From Pseudoxanthomonas mexicana (lineage in GTDB: Bacteria > Pseudomonadota > Gammaproteobacteria > Xanthomonadales > Xanthomonadaceae), in the NCBI RefSeq assembly GCF_001556105.1, contig NZ_LSIF01000055.1:76314-140313 (forward strand): a stretch of DNA of 64,000 bases, given 5' to 3'. Positions 15,241-22,044 of the stretch are shown piece by piece (positions within the stretch are counted from its first letter, which is position 1; the number at the start of each line of letters is the position of its first letter). Under the pieces are notes generated by a model. That model did no database searches, was not told where the DNA came from, and worked only from the letters and a program-made list of their open reading frames with translations. A program made the translations under genes and the position numbers.

Positions 15241-15795
15241 ATGCCAAAGATCAAGGATCTGATCGAGACTGAAAGATTTCTGCTTCGGAGAATCGAGCCA
15301 GAAGACGAGGCGCTGTATGTGGCCATCCATACGGACGCTGGAATAATGCGAAATGCTGGCGGCGCAGTTGAAGAGAGCATTGCTAGAGCCGCCTTTGACA
15401 GGCTGCTGAAGTACGCGGAGTTGCCCGATCTAAAGCAGCACGCGTGGGTGATCAGCTCAAGGGTGGAACCGCCGAATCAGTCGATAGGAGTCGCGGCCAT
15501 GACCGCGCACGGCGCCGACGTAGAGCTAGGCATCATGGTCCTGGAAGCGTGGCAGAGCCTTAAGGTCGCTCAAGAAGTCCTGGCCGAGCTGACAAGGCAT
15601 GCATTCGGTGCGCATGATGCGCAACGTGTCTTCGCACGCCACCTCGCCGACAACTTGGCCGGTGCCGGAGTGATGAAGAGACTTAGCTTTGAATTGATGC
15701 CGGACGTTCCTGGTTCCGACAAATATGTTGGTTGGGTGATGAGGCGGCAGGATTCTTCCGCGCTTGATGGCCGATCTGGCTTTGACGTGCTTTAA
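15241..15795 (+). CDS. GNAT acetyltransferase 1 of the borosin-like cluster
   Basis: The 184-residue GNAT of RimJ/RimL type starts with E-T-E-R-F-L-L-R-R-I and E-D-E-A-L-Y-V-A-I-H-T-D. The strand before the acetyl-CoA loop is V-E-L-G-I-M-V-L. The loop itself reads W-Q-S-L-K-V-A, lacking the glycines of the usual Q/R-x-x-G-x-G/A motif, so acetyl-CoA binding may be weak or lost. It is a paralogue of the other two island GNATs and sits 111 bases upstream of precursor 1. The start is not certain; ATG 15199 and 15181 are in frame. Confidence 0.75.
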   Translation: MPKIKDLIETERFLLRRIEPEDEALYVAIHTDAGIMRNAGGAVEESIARAAFDRLLKYAELPDLKQHAWVISSRVEPPNQSIGVAAMTAHGADVELGIMVLEAWQSLKVAQEVLAELTRHAFGAHDAQRVFARHLADNLAGAGVMKRLSFELMPDVPGSDKYVGWVMRRQDSSALDGRSGFDVL

Positions 15796-15906
15796 CCAAC
15801 ATCGTGACGTTTGATGTGGAAGGTTGGCATATTCGAGATCGATGCTGCTTTCTGCATCAAGGCGTAGTGAAGTAAGGTAATTCCATTCTTTAAAAAGGAG
15901 TTTTCT

Positions 15907-16122
15907 ATGCTGGAAGTCGTAGATGTCCTGGAGCGCCTTGGTGGGGATGCATCCTCTTCCGCGCTTGATGCGGTGGGTTATGAGCAGATGATTCGTGCTT
16001 ATGATTTGCCTGACAAGCACCTCAGTGCGCTGCTCGCGCGCGATGCTCGGGCCCTGAGTAGCGAGCTTGGTGGGCGAGAGGCCATGAACTGCATGATTTT
16101 GGTGCCAGACGAAGAGGGTTAA
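15907..16122 (+). CDS. Putative split borosin precursor peptide 1 (SonA-like)
   Basis: This acidic protein has 71 residues, the length I recall for SonA of Shewanella oneidensis. Residues 1-56 look helical, with L-G-G-D-A at 11 and Y-D-L-P-D-K-H-L-S-A-L-L near 32, which resembles the borosin binding domain. The C-terminus M60-N-C-M-I-L-V-P-D-E-E-G is short and hydrophobic before an acidic end; 63 and 65 correspond to the residues N-methylated in SonA. Precursors 2 and 3 share the pattern G-R-x-x-M-x-C-[MA]-I-x-[VIA]-P-[DE]-E. AAAAAGGAG precedes the ATG and a stable hairpin follows. That it is a methyltransferase substrate is inference. Confidence 0.75.
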   Translation: MLEVVDVLERLGGDASSSALDAVGYEQMIRAYDLPDKHLSALLARDARALSSELGGREAMNCMILVPDEEG

Positions 16123-16150
16123 AGGTTTATTTATAGTTGGACTTCCGTTG

Positions 16151-16176
16151 TCGATCCATCCGAGAGGATGGATCGA
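16151..16176 (+). terminator. Stable 11-bp hairpin with GAGA tetraloop after precursor 1
   Basis: TCGATCCATCC (16151-16161), the GNRA-type loop GAGA, then GGATGGATCGA (16166-16176): a perfect 11-pair stem 29 bases after the precursor 1 stop. No U-tract follows, so it may protect the precursor 3' end or attenuate read-through into the next GNAT. Confidence 0.55.
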
Positions 16177-16306
16177 CTTAGGAGCCGGTTAGCATCTTTC
16201 CAATGGCTGTTTCGGCATTGTGTGAGTGCAGGCGCAGTTGAAGTCTGTGCCGAGAAGAACGTGGTAGCCTTCAGAGGGGAATTCATTTCGCAAGCGCGAG
16301 TGAAAT

Positions 16307-16858
16307 ATGTCTTCAAGAATGCGGCCGGAAGCCAAAGAAATCCGTTTGCGCCTCCTCGATGGCCGCGACAGGGCTCTATATTTGTTTGCCTTTACCGATA
16401 AATCGATGATGCGGTTCGTTGGCGAGCCCGTCGGTGATGAGCGAGCGGAGAAGGCTTTCTCGCGTGCGTGCGCCTCCAATTTGATGCAAAACTTGAAGGC
16501 TCGCACTTGGGTTGTCGAAGTCGGTCCATCAGGTGATGCTGCAGGTCTTCTGAGCATTTCCGTTAAAGGCGCTTCCGCTGAGATCGGTGGCATGATTCTG
16601 CCTCGCTGGCAGGGCCTGGGTATCTCGGGAGCTGTATTCCCATTAGGTATTGCGGAAGCGTTTTCTTTTAGTGAGATTGATGAGATGGTGATCAGATTCA
16701 GTAGCCAGAATGGCCTCGCAGCGGGGCTGATGCCAAAGATCGGATTCTTGCGAACTGCGGAGAGTCACCCTGATGATGGACTGGAACGTTGGGTTCTGCG
16801 TCGGGATGAGTGGGAGCGATGGAGCGTTACGAAGAGAAGTGCTAATTCCCGTCAATAA
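16307..16858 (+). CDS. GNAT acetyltransferase 2 of the borosin-like cluster
   Basis: The 183-residue protein is a paralogue of the GNATs at 15241 and 18035. It shares the N-terminal E-I-R-L-R-L-L-D and D-R-A-L-Y-L-F-A-F-T-D pattern and the strand A-E-I-G-G-M-I-L. The acetyl-CoA loop W-Q-G-L-G-I-S is closer to the family motif than in GNAT 1. K-I-G-F-L-R-T is the usual late GNAT strand. It ends 13 bases before precursor 2, whose ribosome site lies just past its stop, so the two are probably cotranscribed. ATG 16319 is an alternative start. Its substrate is unknown; precursor 2 is the obvious candidate. Confidence 0.8.
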   Translation: MSSRMRPEAKEIRLRLLDGRDRALYLFAFTDKSMMRFVGEPVGDERAEKAFSRACASNLMQNLKARTWVVEVGPSGDAAGLLSISVKGASAEIGGMILPRWQGLGISGAVFPLGIAEAFSFSEIDEMVIRFSSQNGLAAGLMPKIGFLRTAESHPDDGLERWVLRRDEWERWSVTKRSANSRQ

Positions 16859-16871
16859 AAGGAGCTGTTTA

Positions 16872-17108
16872 ATGTCGAGCGCGATTGAATTTCTGGAGAA
16901 AGCTGGGGCAAGTGCGCTGTTCGGTTCTTTCTCCGAGCGCGAGTATCAGGCGATGGTAGCTAGCTTGGATGTCGATGCTTCTCATCGACGGTCGTTGCAA
17001 ACGAAAGATGCGAGTGGACTTGCTCTCAGTCTCTGCGGTCGTGATCAGATGATTTGCATGATCGCGATTCCTGAGGAAGATGATCTTGACTCTGAAGATC
17101 GTGACTGA
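16872..17108 (+). CDS. Putative split borosin precursor peptide 2 (SonA-like)
   Basis: The 78-residue protein is paralogous to precursor 1 and aligns with it without gaps to residue 68. The helical domain ends in A-L-S-L-C-G-R-D-Q, then the core-like segment M60-I-C-M-I-A-I-P-E-E and a strongly acidic tail D-D-L-D-S-E-D-R-D. GGAG sits 7 bases before the ATG at 16872. A longer in-frame opening from 16773 overlaps GNAT 2 and is rejected. A near-perfect hairpin follows at 17118. It lies just upstream of the methyltransferase gene, as expected of a precursor and enzyme pair. Confidence 0.75.
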   Translation: MSSAIEFLEKAGASALFGSFSEREYQAMVASLDVDASHRRSLQTKDASGLALSLCGRDQMICMIAIPEEDDLDSEDRD

Positions 17109-17117
17109 TTGATTGGT

Positions 17118-17152
17118 GCGCTCGAGGCTTGTGTTAGGCGGGCCTCGGGCGC
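17118..17152 (+). terminator. Hairpin terminator or attenuator after precursor 2
   Basis: GCGCTCGAGGC (17118-17128) pairs with GCCTCGGGCGC (17142-17152) with a single G-U wobble around a 13-base loop, followed by TTTATGGTGTTT. It begins 9 bases after the precursor 2 stop and precedes the methyltransferase start by 75 bases, so it could keep precursor transcripts in excess over enzyme. Confidence 0.6.
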
Positions 17153-17227
17153 TTTATGGTGTTTGGTGGCTGATAGCGCGAAGCTGGCTACACAGTAGTC
17201 CGACATTTAATTTTTCGTGAGGGACAA

Positions 17228-18010
17228 ATGGGGAGTTTGGTTTGCGTTGGCACCGGCATGATGTTGGGTGCCCATATCGGTCCGCGTGCACGCAGTCATA
17301 TTGAGAAGGCGGATGTGGTGTTTGTCGCTGTCTCGGATCCACTGGTGGAGCTGTGGGTCCAGGGAATGAACAAGGATGTCCGCAGCCTTCAGCCATTCTA
17401 TGAAGAGGGGAAGCCCAGGACCGAGACCTACCGTCAGATGGTTGCTGCGATGATGGATGAGGTGCGAGCCGGTCGACGGGTATGCGGCGCGTTCTACGGT
17501 CATCCGGGTGTCTTCGCGCTCGTTCCGCATAGGGCGATTGACCTGGCAAGGCAAGAGGGATACGAGGCCGTCATGGAGGCTGGAGTGTCGGCCGAAGATT
17601 GCCTTTACGCCGATCTTGGCATCGATCCTGGCACGTTCGGATGCCAGCACTACGAGGCCAGCCAGTTCATGTTCTACAAGCGGAAGATCGATCTTTCCGC
17701 ATACCTTATCCTTTGGCAGATCGGTGTAGCAGGTGACAGGACGCTGGCGAGATTCTCGACGGGAGCGGCATTCCGTGAGGTGCTTGTGGATCTGCTGGCG
17801 GAAGAAGGCTATCCGACTTCGCATGAAGTGATCGCGTACGAAGCAGCGACGCTTGCCATATCCGAGCCGCGAATGGATCGATTGCCCTTGGCCGATCTGC
17901 CGTCCGCAGAGTTGCGGCTGAGTACTACGCTAGTAATTCCGCCGGCGCGCCCGCTTGAGCGGAATGAATTGGTGCTCCAACGACTGGCGAGCTTGCCGAC
18001 TGAAGTTTAG
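17228..18010 (+). CDS. Split borosin alpha-N-methyltransferase (SonM-like)
   Basis: The 260-residue protein has the tetrapyrrole-methylase fold used by borosin enzymes. It opens M-G-S-L-V-C-V-G-T-G, the SAM-binding start shared with SonM, and has F-Y-G-H-P-G-V-F near residue 89 and Q-F-M-F-Y near 146. The residues needed for amide methylation in OphMA and SonM appear conserved: Y58, R64, Y68 (P-R-T-E-T-Y-R-Q-M-V) and Y90. SonM-type enzymes work in trans, methylating backbone amides of a separate precursor, unlike the fused fungal OphMA. No clasp or core is fused here, and three precursor-like genes flank it. A cobalamin methylase or RsmI is less likely given those residues and neighbours. GAGGGA precedes the ATG. 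Confidence 0.85.
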   Translation: MGSLVCVGTGMMLGAHIGPRARSHIEKADVVFVAVSDPLVELWVQGMNKDVRSLQPFYEEGKPRTETYRQMVAAMMDEVRAGRRVCGAFYGHPGVFALVPHRAIDLARQEGYEAVMEAGVSAEDCLYADLGIDPGTFGCQHYEASQFMFYKRKIDLSAYLILWQIGVAGDRTLARFSTGAAFREVLVDLLAEEGYPTSHEVIAYEAATLAISEPRMDRLPLADLPSAELRLSTTLVIPPARPLERNELVLQRLASLPTEV

Positions 18011-18034
18011 TCGTCTGACGTTGGAGATTTGATC

Positions 18035-18562
18035 GTGGCGCCGCCGCCGTCGGGAATACCGCATCTTTACTCGTCTAAGCTCTATCTTCGTCCTCTGATT
18101 GCATTAGACGAAGCGAGGTACGTGTCATTGTTCACGGATCCGGAAATCATGGAGCATGTTGGTTCCCCGATGGGGAAAATTGACGCCGCTTCAGCGTTCT
18201 CTGCGACGTTGGGCATGATGTCCAAGTCGCCGCCCGACGCTTGGCTCTGGATTGCGTGCGATCGTACGGGTGGTCAAGAGGTTGGATTGTTCGGGTTGGT
18301 CATGCGGGAGGGCCGCTACGAGATCGGCGCGATGGTCCTGGAGGAGCACCAGGGTCGGGGTTTCGCTTATGAAGCACTGTCGTGCGTGCGTGACTTCGGT
18401 TTTGCGCAGTTGAGATTGGCGGCTCAGTTCGGTCGTCAGCTGGCATCCAATCGACGATCTGTCGGGTTGATGCTCAAGCTGGGGTTCGAGCAGGTTCCAG
18501 ATGGACCTCGCAGCGTCCATTGGCAGCTGGATCGCGCCGTTTGGGCCTCACGGCTCCGTTAA
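18035..18562 (+). CDS. GNAT acetyltransferase 3 of the borosin-like cluster
   Basis: This protein of about 175 residues is a paralogue of GNATs 1 and 2. It has S-S-K-L-Y-L-R-P-L, D-E-A-R-Y-V-S-L-F-T-D-P, the strand Y-E-I-G-A-M-V-L and a complete acetyl-CoA loop H-Q-G-R-G-F-A. It is the best preserved of the three. The GTG at 18035 is chosen because GGAG (18023-18026) lies 8 bases before it; TTG 18029 is too close. It begins 24 bases after the methyltransferase stop and is followed, after 259 bases, by precursor 3. Confidence 0.8.
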   Translation: MAPPPSGIPHLYSSKLYLRPLIALDEARYVSLFTDPEIMEHVGSPMGKIDAASAFSATLGMMSKSPPDAWLWIACDRTGGQEVGLFGLVMREGRYEIGAMVLEEHQGRGFAYEALSCVRDFGFAQLRLAAQFGRQLASNRRSVGLMLKLGFEQVPDGPRSVHWQLDRAVWASRLR

Positions 18563-18821
18563 GGGTGCCCTGAGCTGTTGGGATTGGTGCCCCCGGTGGG
18601 GCCGAGGCAGGTCTTCCCGCTTTCCCTTGGGTGGCAGTCCAGGTCAATGGGCAGAATCACGCGGGGTAGTGATCCATGCGGAAACCCGCTATCTTCAGCA
18701 CGGGGATAGGTAGGGGGTAAGCATTGCCCGCCTCGGCTCTGGCGGCCTTGGGGCTGTCGCCTGGAGGCGATGGATGACCCGACGAATGGCTGTTTTCTAG
18801 ACGTGCTCTATTGGGGAAGAT

Positions 18822-19112
18822 ATGTCGGATCATATGGTGAAGTGTCTTGAGGGCATGGGGAGCGACGCATCGGTGTCATTCCTCACCCATGAGCAGTATG
18901 TGGTTATGGTGGGGGCGATGGAGCTCTCGGAGCCTGAGCAGTCAGCACTGCTCGGTCGTGACGTCCAGCGCATCAATGATCTACTCGGGGGTCGACCGCA
19001 GATGGTCTGCGCCATTTTCGCGCCCGAGGAAAGCCCGCTCAAGGAAGGAGAAGATGGAGATGGGCAGCAAGATGGCGAAGATCTTCCGAACGAGGATGCG
19101 CCGCTCAACTGA
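18822..19112 (+). CDS. Putative split borosin precursor peptide 3 with long acidic tail
   Basis: The 96-residue protein is paralogous to precursors 1 and 2. It has H-E-Q-Y-V-V-M-V near residue 23, E-L-S-E-P-E-Q-S-A-L-L near 34, L-L-G-G-R-P-Q-M-V-C-A-I-F-A-P-E-E at 54-70, then a 26-residue Asp/Glu/Gly-rich tail absent from the others. The last 59 bases overlap, in another frame, the start of the TPR-GGDEF gene, so the tail may come from that overlap. GGGGAAG precedes the ATG at 18822. Its spacing from its GNAT is larger than in the other pairs. The precursor role is inferred from the shared core pattern. Confidence 0.72.
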   Translation: MSDHMVKCLEGMGSDASVSFLTHEQYVVMVGAMELSEPEQSALLGRDVQRINDLLGGRPQMVCAIFAPEESPLKEGEDGDGQQDGEDLPNEDAPLN

Positions 19113-20946
19113 GTCCTTTGGCAGGGGCATAAGGCGAGCCGTCGTCCAGGCATGGACGGCGGTTCTGTTTGTGTCCGTTATGCAGGCCAGTCCTGTCGCC
19201 TTCGCTGCTGGACCGGAGCGGGTGAGTGAATTGCTGGAGAAGGCTGAGGAGCTGCGGAGTTCCGATGCTTTGGCTTTCAGGCGATTCTTGCGAGAGGCAA
19301 ATGAGTCGCGCACTGAGGCCACCGAGGCTCAGCGTGAGCAGATGGACTATTTGAATGCTTACGCACTCAATACGTCCGGTCGTTTCGCTGATGCAATCGC
19401 GGCCACGAAGAGTCTGCTGGCCACAACGACGGACAAGAACCTGCGGGTACGCGCGAGCGCGCTGCTCGTCAATAGTTATGGTGCTACCAGGCAGTTCGCC
19501 GAGGGTCTACGTCAGCTTGAGCGAACGCTGGAATGGTTGCCCGAAAGCAACGATCCTCGCATGCATGTGCATGCGATGGTATCGGCCAGCATTCTCTACA
19601 ATCTGATCGGCCAGTATCAGCATGGCCTTGATTACGCCCTCAAGCTGCAACAGCAAACCTTAAGTGAGCGCGAGCAGTGTTTTGCGCGGTACACAGAGGC
19701 TGAAGCTAAATTTTTCTTGGGCAAGTCGACTGATAGTGCCGACATTGCTGCAGTGGTGGAGTTCTGTGCGTCGATCCGTGAGGCAATCCTATCCAATCTG
19801 GGGCGGCAGCTGTTGGCCCGTCAGCTGGCGGATAACGGACAACGTAAGAATGCCATCTCGCTGCTGCAGAACCATCTCGCAGACGCTGAGGCCACGCGTT
19901 ACCCGCGTTTGATCGGCGAAACCCATGCATTGCTCGCGCAATACATGCTCGAAGAAGAGAGCTTTGCCGGGGCGGAGCAGCATGCGACAGCCGCTGTAGC
20001 GTATTCGACCGATATCGCTTACTCGCAGCCTCTGGTGACGGCTTACCATACGCTTTATGAGTTGGCGCAGCGAAAGGGCGATCCGCAGTCCGCTCTTAAC
20101 TATTTCAGGAAGTACGCGGAAGCCGACAAGGCCTATCTCAATGAGATCAAGGCGCGAGAGCTGGCTTACCAGATCGTTCGCCAGGAAACTTTGCAGAAAT
20201 CTCAGCAGATCAGTGTCCTGGATCAGGAAAACCAGGTGCTCCAGCTACAGCGCCAAGTAGACAAGGCGGCACAGGACAACAACCGCCTGATCGTCATCCT
20301 ACTGGTGCTGCTGGTCGCCTCGATAGGCTATTGGGCGTTCAAGATCAAGCGTGTGCAGCTGTCGCTGAAGAAGATGGCCGAGACCGATGCCCTGACCGGC
20401 ATCTGCAACCGCCACCACTTCACCATCCGCGCCGAGCGCGCGCTGGCCGAGTGCGCCCGCAATGGCGAACAGGCCTCGCTGATCATGTTCGACCTGGACC
20501 ACTTCAAGAACATCAACGACCGCTTCGGCCACGGCACCGGCGACTGGGCGCTGAAGGAAGTCGCCGAGGCGAGCCAGGGGTTCTGCCGTCGCATCGACGT
20601 GCTGGGCCGCCTCGGCGGCGAAGAGTTCGCCATCCTGATGTACGGCTGCGACCTGCGCGCCGCCGCCCGTGTCGCTGAAGACTGCCGCGTGCGCCTGGCC
20701 CAGATTGAAACCCGCGACACCGGCCACGTCTTCGCCATCACCGGCAGCTTTGGCGTGACCTCAAGCCAGCACTCCGGTTACAGCCTGGCGAAGCTGCTTT
20801 CGCACGCCGACAAGCAGCTCTACCGCGCCAAGCACAATGGCCGTAACCGTGTGTGCGTTGTCGAGACAGAGCAGGACGCCGCCCGCGTGGCCAGCAACGT
20901 GCTGGAGATGCCGCACCGCGACCGCGCCGAGCACCTCGGCGCCTGA
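19054..20946 (+). CDS. Exported TPR-sensor diguanylate cyclase (TPR-TM-GGDEF)
   Basis: The 630-residue protein has a basic start, a signal-like helix (about 28-52, ending A-F-A-A-G), a periplasmic TPR-type helical region (about 55-370), a coiled coil (about 375-405), one membrane helix (about 410-428) and a cytosolic GGDEF domain with active site G-G-E-E-F at 521-525. It should make c-di-GMP in response to a periplasmic signal. The ATG at 19054 has AAGGAAGGAG just upstream. G+C jumps from about 50% in the TPR part to about 70% in the GGDEF part, so the gene looks like a mosaic. It overlaps precursor 3 by 59 bases, so it may be translated from the same mRNA. Confidence 0.87.
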   Translation: MEMGSKMAKIFRTRMRRSTESFGRGIRRAVVQAWTAVLFVSVMQASPVAFAAGPERVSELLEKAEELRSSDALAFRRFLREANESRTEATEAQREQMDYLNAYALNTSGRFADAIAATKSLLATTTDKNLRVRASALLVNSYGATRQFAEGLRQLERTLEWLPESNDPRMHVHAMVSASILYNLIGQYQHGLDYALKLQQQTLSEREQCFARYTEAEAKFFLGKSTDSADIAAVVEFCASIREAILSNLGRQLLARQLADNGQRKNAISLLQNHLADAEATRYPRLIGETHALLAQYMLEEESFAGAEQHATAAVAYSTDIAYSQPLVTAYHTLYELAQRKGDPQSALNYFRKYAEADKAYLNEIKARELAYQIVRQETLQKSQQISVLDQENQVLQLQRQVDKAAQDNNRLIVILLVLLVASIGYWAFKIKRVQLSLKKMAETDALTGICNRHHFTIRAERALAECARNGEQASLIMFDLDHFKNINDRFGHGTGDWALKEVAEASQGFCRRIDVLGRLGGEEFAILMYGCDLRAAARVAEDCRVRLAQIETRDTGHVFAITGSFGVTSSQHSGYSLAKLLSHADKQLYRAKHNGRNRVCVVETEQDAARVASNVLEMPHRDRAEHLGA

Positions 20947-20955
20947 GGGGCCGGA

Positions 20956-22044
20956 TCAGGGCGTATCGACGATCGCCCGCAGGTTGTCGTCGATGGCCAA
21001 CTGGTTGCGGCCCCGGCTCTTGGCCTGATACAGCGCCCGGTCGGCCGCTTCGAGCCAGGCGCGCAAACCGTCCGCCGATCCCGTTGCCTTCGCCAACCCA
21101 AGGCTGACGGTGGGGCATAGCCCCGGCGCGCTGCCCACTTGCAAGGTCTGCACGCCTTCGCGGATACGCTGCGCCACGATGCCGGCCGCCTCCACGTCGG
21201 TGCCGCGCAGCAGCACCGCGAACTCGTCGCCGCCCAGCCGGCCCGCGGCATCGTGACCACGGATGCTGTGGCGGATCACGTCCGCTGTCGCGCGCAGTAC
21301 GTCGTCGCCGGCCGCATGGCCGTGGCGGTCGTTGATCGCCTTGAAGTGGTCGATATCGATCATCAGCAGCGTGGCCGGCTCGCCGGTCGCCGCGCATTGG
21401 TCGAGCAGCAGCGCCGCCTGTTCCTGCCAGTGCCGCCGACTGTCCAGCGCGGTCAGCGTGTCGCGCCGGCTCAGTTCGTCCAGCTGCCGGTTCTGCCGCT
21501 TCACCTTGCGCACCAGGTGGTAGCTGGCCTGGCTGACGGCGATCGAATGGATCAGCAGCATCGGCAGGCAGGCGACCATCACCGGCATGCTGGTCGCCGG
21601 CTGCATCTCGAATCCCGTGGCGACGCCGATGGCCAGCGCGCTCGCGGCCATCAGTGGCAGCGACCAGTACCAGAGACGATCGATGCCGGTGCTGATCTTG
21701 TCGACCGTGGCCAGCGTCACCAGCAGCACGCTGGGCAGCAGGTTGAAGGCCATCAAGGGAACCCACATGCCGGCCAGGATCGAGTCGACCAGCAAGTTGC
21801 GGATCTCGCCGCGGAATGGCACGGGGTGTCGCAGCGCGAGCCACAGGGCGAGCTGCGGCCACAAGACCGTGGTGAAGAACAGGAACGCCCAATGACCGAT
21901 CCCCGCCTGGTTCTCCAGCAGGACCATGCCGATCGGCAGCGATGCCAAACCCATGCCGAGCATGCGCAGATGATGAATCCTGCGCGGCAGTCGTTGGGTG
22001 TGGCGCGCCGGGTCGGCGGCCGAGGGCGGTTCAGTGGACGGCAT
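20956..22044 (-). CDS. MASE2-type membrane diguanylate cyclase (AdrA/DgcC-like)
   Basis: The 362-residue protein has five or six membrane helices (about 28-185) in a MASE2-like block and a GGDEF domain with intact R-L-G-G-D-E-F near residue 270. This is the layout of E. coli DgcC (AdrA), which makes c-di-GMP for matrix production. The D-T-L-T-A-L-D-S-R-R-H-W segment is the usual GGDEF entry. It converges on the TPR-GGDEF gene with 9 bases between stops, so two cyclases end tail to tail. Confidence 0.9.
   Translation of the reverse strand: MPSTEPPSAADPARHTQRLPRRIHHLRMLGMGLASLPIGMVLLENQAGIGHWAFLFFTTVLWPQLALWLALRHPVPFRGEIRNLLVDSILAGMWVPLMAFNLLPSVLLVTLATVDKISTGIDRLWYWSLPLMAASALAIGVATGFEMQPATSMPVMVACLPMLLIHSIAVSQASYHLVRKVKRQNRQLDELSRRDTLTALDSRRHWQEQAALLLDQCAATGEPATLLMIDIDHFKAINDRHGHAAGDDVLRATADVIRHSIRGHDAAGRLGGDEFAVLLRGTDVEAAGIVAQRIREGVQTLQVGSAPGLCPTVSLGLAKATGSADGLRAWLEAADRALYQAKSRGRNQLAIDDNLRAIVDTP

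What the first reader, a model, noticed from the sequence alone, without database searches (positions are those of the whole stretch)
15241..19112. Split borosin (backbone N-methylated RiPP) cluster with three precursors and three GNATs
The order is GNAT, precursor, GNAT, precursor, N-methyltransferase, GNAT, precursor. The enzyme has the SonM-type N-terminus and the residues Y58, R64, Y68 and Y90 expected for amide methylation. The three small proteins look like SonA: a helical recognition domain, then a short core. Known split borosins are usually described with one enzyme and one or a few precursors; three precursors each paired with its own GNAT is an arrangement I do not know from the literature. 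The chemistry (methylation, then possible acetylation) is inference.
Basis: partly seen in the sequence, partly recalled or inferred. Interest (0 to 1): 0.93.

Follow-up and report, generated by a model that had tools for sequence, protein, structure and literature searches.

The report
Borosin pheromone genes with c-di-GMP receptor
A bacterial gene cluster encodes an enzyme predicted to N-methylate the backbone of three small peptides, followed by a predicted membrane enzyme for the messenger c-di-GMP that is likely the receptor for at least one of them, so the cluster would be a peptide-pheromone system built from a borosin-type modified peptide.

Summary
In detail: 15241-19112 carries GNAT, precursor, GNAT, precursor, SonM-type methyltransferase, GNAT, precursor. 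The enzyme is a clear split-borosin methyltransferase (SonM, 1.4e-78). The precursors have a SonA-type borosin-binding domain by profile and, for the one modelled (A3), by fold. It directly follows the precursor in 105 of 113 loci surveyed, window included; 6 of the other 8 are cut by contig ends. A GGDEF gene lies near the enzyme in 38 of 40 loci of the Colwellia order, including near-identical SonM/SonA loci. Of 395 family genomes, 102 have both stand-alone genes, 2 and 2 only one. In the window's clade the precursor core and the TPR domain vary together (partial r 0.55-0.61) while GGDEF stays 85-99% identical, as for pheromone and receptor; over all loci this is weak. Inferred mechanism: the N-methylated core leaves the cell, binds the periplasmic TPR domain and sets c-di-GMP synthesis. 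The three GNATs belong to three different lineages, as if foreign cassettes were collected. Methylation, export, acylation and binding are untested.

The parts
15241..15795 (+). GNAT 1 (Acetyltransf_3), lineage shared with L139/L144/L145/L154; P-loop glycine replaced by Lys in this lineage
15907..16122 (+). precursor A1, 71 aa, no acidic tail
16084..16119 (+). A1 core region MNCMILVPDEEG; M63 and L65 are placed opposite the methylated L63 and I65 of SonA
   Evidence: methylation sites from PMC8429565 (passage); placement inferred from alignment with SonA-like precursors
16307..16858 (+). GNAT 2 (Acetyltransf_3), lineage shared with L067/L069
16872..17108 (+). precursor A2, 78 aa, core MICMIAIPEE, 8 residues after the aligned core
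17228..18010 (+). SonM-type peptide backbone N-methyltransferase, 260 aa
18035..18562 (+). GNAT 3 (Acetyltransf_3), lineage shared with L133/L146/L152, P-loop QGRGFA
18822..19112 (+). precursor A3, 96 aa: five-helix borosin-binding domain, core MVCAIFAPEESP, acidic tail
19002..19037 (+). A3 core region, of the type that goes with the resident TPR type (block I)
19060..20946 (+). TPR-TM-GGDEF diguanylate cyclase, 628 aa from this start (start codon chosen by eye), likely receptor; overlaps the end of A3
19210..20280 (+). TPR domain (likely periplasmic, likely ligand-binding), AF2 mean pLDDT 92.9
20290..20346 (+). predicted transmembrane helix IVILLVLLVASIGYWAFKI
20377..20850 (+). GGDEF domain (GGEEF motif, RxxD upstream)

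Best explanation
This is a split-borosin locus in which one SonM-like enzyme is predicted to N-methylate the backbone of three short precursor peptides, and the TPR-GGDEF protein encoded right after the last precursor is likely the receptor that would turn the mature peptide into a c-di-GMP signal. Proposed steps: (1) the borosin-binding domain of A1-A3 docks on the methyltransferase, which methylates the hydrophobic core (inferred from homology); (2) the core is cut free and exported or diffuses out (no protease or exporter was identified or searched for systematically); (3) a GNAT probably acylates the peptide, most simply at its new N-terminus, because the A1 and A2 cores contain no Lys, Ser or Thr (inferred); (4) the peptide binds the predicted periplasmic TPR superhelix and changes cyclase activity (inferred from synteny, fusion, co-occurrence and core-TPR covariation); (5) lineages carry different core/TPR types, like pherotypes. 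The window strain has the A3 core that fits its own TPR type, plus two extra precursors without acidic tail, each beside a GNAT of another lineage and without a receptor of its own, which would make it a sender of additional, possibly foreign-type, peptides.
Against: No binding, methylation, export or c-di-GMP data. Over 81 dereplicated loci core~TPR given enzyme and GGDEF is weak (r 0.08, p 0.08). In three other clades it is positive but mostly short of significance: 0.29/0.067, 0.19/0.27, 0.44/0.086 at GGDEF >= 75%; 0.32/0.026, 0.41/0.011, 0.32/0.075 at 65%, where the window's merged cluster of 23 gives 0.15/0.10 and leader~TPR 0.28/0.016; in one clade core~enzyme is stronger than core~TPR. 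In the 16 loci core also tracks the enzyme when only flanks are controlled (0.33, p 0.0004), though not with one locus per cluster (0.14, p 0.23). The clade was looked at after the pattern was suspected. Membrane side is a prediction: in the window protein a 19-residue hydropathy scan passes 1.6 only at the TM; the N-terminal stretch passes only the laxer 13-residue scan. TPR folds are common, and eukaryotic TPR proteins match as well or better. L123 and L113 have the enzyme but no receptor. The core type of A2 is ambiguous (0.38/0.44/0.43 to blocks I/II/III).
Confidence: 0.58

Rival explanations
1. The borosin is an ordinary exported natural product (for instance an antimicrobial or metal-binding peptide) and the TPR-GGDEF protein only regulates when it is made or coordinates it with biofilm life.
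For: Cyclases are common regulators (general knowledge); the GNAT could serve self-protection; split-borosin pathways had no final product assigned in the 2021 SonM paper (PMC8429565, passage).
Against: A plain regulator need not vary with the core sequence, yet TPR and core vary together in the window's clade while GGDEF and flanking genes do not follow. Several duplications carry precursor plus receptor.
Confidence: 0.2
2. The diguanylate cyclase is a membrane scaffold for biosynthesis: its TPR or GGDEF part recruits the enzyme or precursor, as the fused proteins suggest, and the peptide acts elsewhere.
For: Fused proteins; near-perfect co-occurrence.
Against: The TPR part is predicted to lie on the other side of the membrane from precursor and enzyme. 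The leader, which docks on the enzyme in SonM/SonA, tracks the enzyme over all loci (r 0.31, p 0.0005; not significant in the window's clade, 0.15, p 0.19) and not TPR in that clade.
Confidence: 0.12
3. The extra GNAT-precursor pairs are decaying leftovers of recombination with no function (this concerns A1/A2 only and can be true together with the best explanation).
For: A1 and A2 lack the acidic tail; GNAT 1 has a changed P-loop; the cassettes' GNATs are of different lineages.
Against: All frames are open; short precursors placed before a longer one recur in L014, L015, L056, L060, L142 and L148; the GNAT 1 P-loop change is shared by four other loci. Selection was not tested.
Confidence: 0.25

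Closest known systems
Type IV split borosin SonM/SonA (Shewanella oneidensis)
   Different: Three precursors, three GNATs, acidic tail on A3; no GNAT hit in the SonM-like loci read
GGDEF-containing borosin architecture drawn in PMC11395268 Figure 1 (only the legend and passages seen)
   Same: A GGDEF domain in a borosin pathway
   Different: Here the cyclase is a separate gene; no function or ligand role is stated in the passages read; of the typing papers it cites, PMC9019853 is not held and Cho 2022 was not looked up
RRNPP peptide receptors (Rap, NprR, AimR)
   Different: Those are cytosolic with phosphatase or DNA-binding output (recalled); this one is predicted membrane-bound with a GGDEF output
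ComQXP pherotype system of Bacillus
   Same: Modifying enzyme, short precursor and membrane receptor in a row; communication groups (starts of abstracts in the listing; domain-level covariation recalled)
   Different: Isoprenylation and histidine kinase there; predicted N-methylation and diguanylate cyclase here
RcbB TPR-GGDEF cyclase of Vibrio vulnificus (abstract and passages of PMC12282931)
   Same: N-terminal TPR domain controlling a C-terminal GGDEF domain
   Different: Partner is the TPR protein RcbA; the word methyltransferase does not occur in the paper

Membership tests
Split (type IV) borosin | Methyltransferase homologous to SonM/OphMA | tested here: met
   phmmer 1.4e-78 to SonM, about 1e-50 to OphMA
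Split (type IV) borosin | Active-site Tyr/Arg/Tyr residues | tested here: met
   Y58, R64, Y68 align with SonM Y58, R67, Y71
Split (type IV) borosin | Separate precursor with five-helix borosin-binding domain and C-terminal core | tested here: met
Split (type IV) borosin | Backbone N-methylation of the core | not testable with these tools
   Needs mass spectrometry
Diguanylate cyclase | GGDEF domain with GG[DE]EF motif | tested here: met
   PF00990 8.4e-42; GGEEF. Activity not tested
RRNPP peptide receptor | TPR ligand-binding superhelix | tested here: met
RRNPP peptide receptor | Cytosolic receptor with HTH or phosphatase output | tested here: not met
   Predicted TM before a GGDEF output. 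Not filed as a member
ComQXP-like pherotype system | Precursor core and receptor sensor domain covary beyond kinship | tested here: met
   Window clade r 0.55-0.61; weak over all loci and partly repeated in other clades
ComQXP-like pherotype system | Isoprenyl transferase and histidine kinase | tested here: not met
   Methyltransferase and GGDEF instead. Works like, not a member

The most novel reading that the evidence does not exclude
Gram-negative bacteria from Pseudoxanthomonas to Shewanella use backbone N-methylated RiPPs as polymorphic peptide pheromones, read by the periplasmic TPR domain of a dedicated diguanylate cyclase; the window strain speaks in up to three dialects (A1, A2, A3) but hears with one receptor, having captured foreign GNAT-precursor cassettes.
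Probability: 0.45. Interest if true: 0.95.

Novelty: new variant of a known kind. Interest (0 to 1): 0.86.

Why it matters
In the 2021 SonM/SonA paper no split-borosin pathway had a final product (PMC8429565, passage), and the words GGDEF, diguanylate, c-di-GMP, TPR, signal and operon do not occur in its main text. If the cyclase is the receptor, the question what these peptides are for becomes directly testable in Shewanella oneidensis MR-1, a laboratory strain. It would add a chemical class of peptide signal and a receptor design, a peptide pheromone read straight into c-di-GMP, and would give a reason for the diversity of the cores.

Tried and rejected
Single-sequence phmmer of each precursor against the PDB: no SonA, only chance-level hits. 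GNAT-core pairing as the main coupling: not supported in general, partial Mantel r -0.09 over 72 loci and -0.12 in the clade. For the window alone, the core of the locus with the nearest GNAT fits the adjacent precursor best in 3 of 3 cases, but for A2 only by 0.39 vs 0.38, chance 1 in 6. GNAT~TPR given enzyme and GGDEF is weakly positive over 66 loci (r 0.19, p 0.002) but absent in the clade. Local duplication of the three window GNATs: rejected on a tree of 32 of the 110 GNAT rows, AU p 1.9e-42. One search translated the cyclase in a wrong frame and is discarded; one search repeats it correctly. Literature, library only: no paper with borosin and diguanylate cyclase, none with borosin and c-di-GMP, none with SO1480 and Shewanella oneidensis (that locus tag was a guess); borosin with acetyltransferase gave three papers, listing only seen. 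The listing (30 of 909 papers) showed the GGDEF mention in PMC11395268. PMC9019853, a split-borosin typing paper, is not held, so I cannot say that the cyclase neighbour is unreported.
Full report

Family survey. Enzyme homologues were found in 21 named loci, in 133 of 395 genomes of the family of Pseudoxanthomonas sp. PXM02 (G001, E <= 1e-40), 9 of 369 of its class (1e-20) and 95 of 394 of the order of a Colwellia genome (1e-30). One named locus, L012, repeats L079, so 113 stand-alone loci include one duplicate. The order was exactly G-M-A in 61 of 119; the window's G-A-G-A-M-G-A occurred once. An adjacent GNAT was found in 94 of 111 relatives (88 of 105 with at least 1.5 kb on both sides) and a GNAT hit within 3.5 kb in 19 of 40 loci of the Colwellia order.

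Precursors. The family has a leader of about 55 residues, a short hydrophobic core, often with a Cys and usually ending in P or A and acidic residues, and an acidic tail (median 24 residues after the aligned core in relatives). L123 carries three core repeats, which supports the placement of the core. A1 and A2 have 1 and 8 residues after the core. Of eight loci with two or more precursors before one cyclase (L014, L015, L056, L060, L106, L142, L148, window), seven have shorter precursors (60-78 aa) first and a longer one nearest the cyclase; L106 does not. In the Colwellia-order set L225 (two alike) and L243 (longer one first) do not follow this. The four SonA-like precursors aligned have no tail.

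The missing partner. A TPR-GGDEF gene follows the precursor in 105 of 113 loci. Six of the remaining eight (L019, L054, L070, L095, L098, L116) end at a contig edge, three of them inside a TPR frame; L113 and L123 lack it. In the Colwellia order I read 40 loci of the matches in 95 genomes: 38 have a GGDEF gene within 3.5 kb of the enzyme, on either strand, and the other two (L231, L252) have TPR-only proteins; 28 pass both a TPR and a GGDEF hit on the enzyme's strand with the window protein as query, and L225 shows only a GGDEF fragment. L237, L243 and L242 carry enzymes 98, 98 and 92% identical to SonM, each with SonA-like precursor(s) and then the cyclase; Pfam finds GGDEF and TPR_2 in that of L237. 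In another clade 8 of 11 outlying or long-frame enzymes read carry GGDEF and methyltransferase in one chain (L126-L129, L131, L180-L182), 6 with a hit to the window's TPR part, with a precursor-like hit just upstream in all 8 (TPR and both enzyme domains seen by Pfam for L126 and L127, TPR of L126 below cut-off); L130, L178 and L179 do not. A TPR profile search of the same 395 genomes (five best candidates per genome scored) gives 102 genomes with both the stand-alone enzyme and this TPR type, 2 with the enzyme only (G023 and G044, the sources of L123 and L113), 2 with the TPR only, and 289 with neither stand-alone gene, of which 29 have only fused or outlying enzymes; six weak TPR hits that lie on the contigs of long-frame enzymes were set aside. 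The Fisher value (6e-90) ignores kinship.

Covariation. In 16 loci whose GGDEF domains are 85-99% identical, TPR identity is 39-50% between three blocks and 52-99% within them. Cores follow the blocks: VCAI[FY]AP (window A3, L132, L135), CM[IV]WAP (L137, L146, L152, L158, L063), CM[IV][LVA][AT]P (L133, L134, L139, L144, L145, L154, L067, L069). Partial Mantel core~TPR given enzyme, GGDEF and leader is 0.55, p 0.0002; GNAT~TPR, GNAT~core, leader~TPR and leader~enzyme are not significant. With the flanking thioredoxin and GGDEF2 genes as kinship control it is 0.59 (0.56 with enzyme and GGDEF too), and with one locus per TPR cluster (10 loci) 0.60-0.61, p 0.0004; TPR itself does not follow the flanking genes. 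With flanks alone controlled, core~enzyme (0.33) and TPR~enzyme (0.28) are also significant in the 16 loci but not in the 10. Along the cyclase, between-block identity is 0.27-0.45 over TPR residues 1-280, 0.65-0.83 over 281-360, 0.93-0.97 over TM and most of GGDEF, and 0.80 at its end. Against this, the signal is weak over all 81 loci (0.08, p 0.08) and only partly repeated in other clades (values in the Against line). Over all loci the leader follows the enzyme (0.31, p 0.0005), as a docking domain should.

The window's extra cassettes. Its three GNATs are 26-28% identical to each other but group with single GNATs of other genomes: G1 with L139/L144/L145/L154 (support 92/91), G2 with L067/L069 (100/99), G3 with L133/L146/L152 (100/99); one clade is rejected. 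The A3 core is of the resident receptor's block I (mean similarity 0.71). The A1 core is nearest to block III (0.49, against 0.45 for II and 0.37 for I), the block of its GNAT's relatives; A2 is undecided. I read this as capture of GNAT-precursor cassettes without their receptors; that is inference.

Verdict. Observation confirmed; classification as split borosin confirmed by sequence and, for A3, by fold. The mechanism I commit to is a borosin pheromone read by a TPR diguanylate cyclase: supported by position, fusion, co-occurrence and covariation; methylation, processing, export, acylation, binding and signalling are unshown.

Noticed in passing
L123 (about 686 bp before the enzyme): Precursor with three core repeats (YFCWVATPEE, YFCAVNTPEL, YFCGVLTPEE), order GNAT-precursor-enzyme, and no TPR-GGDEF gene; its genome (G023) is one of two with the stand-alone enzyme but without the TPR type.
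   Followed up: partly
L126-L129, L131, L180-L182: Proteins of about 830-930 residues (open frame) with GGDEF and borosin methyltransferase in one chain and a separate precursor-like frame just upstream.
   Followed up: partly
L231, L252: SonM-like enzyme and precursor next to TPR-only proteins without a GGDEF hit.
   Followed up: no
window 15241-15795 and L139, L144, L145, L154: GNAT P-loop glycine replaced by Lys in a whole lineage (QSLK/QGRK), so acyl-CoA use may be altered.
   Followed up: no
window 19210-20280, residues 157 and 186 of the TPR domain: Two cysteines present in 103 of 103 aligned cyclases, possible periplasmic disulfide.
   Followed up: no
window 20956-22044, minus strand: A second GGDEF gene convergent with the receptor, not part of the system; a homologue was found in 16 of 16 clade loci as part of the flank.
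   Followed up: partly
G944, G965, G995: Small genomes (2.7-2.9 Mb) with three enzyme matches each, one of them interrupted by stops.
   Followed up: no
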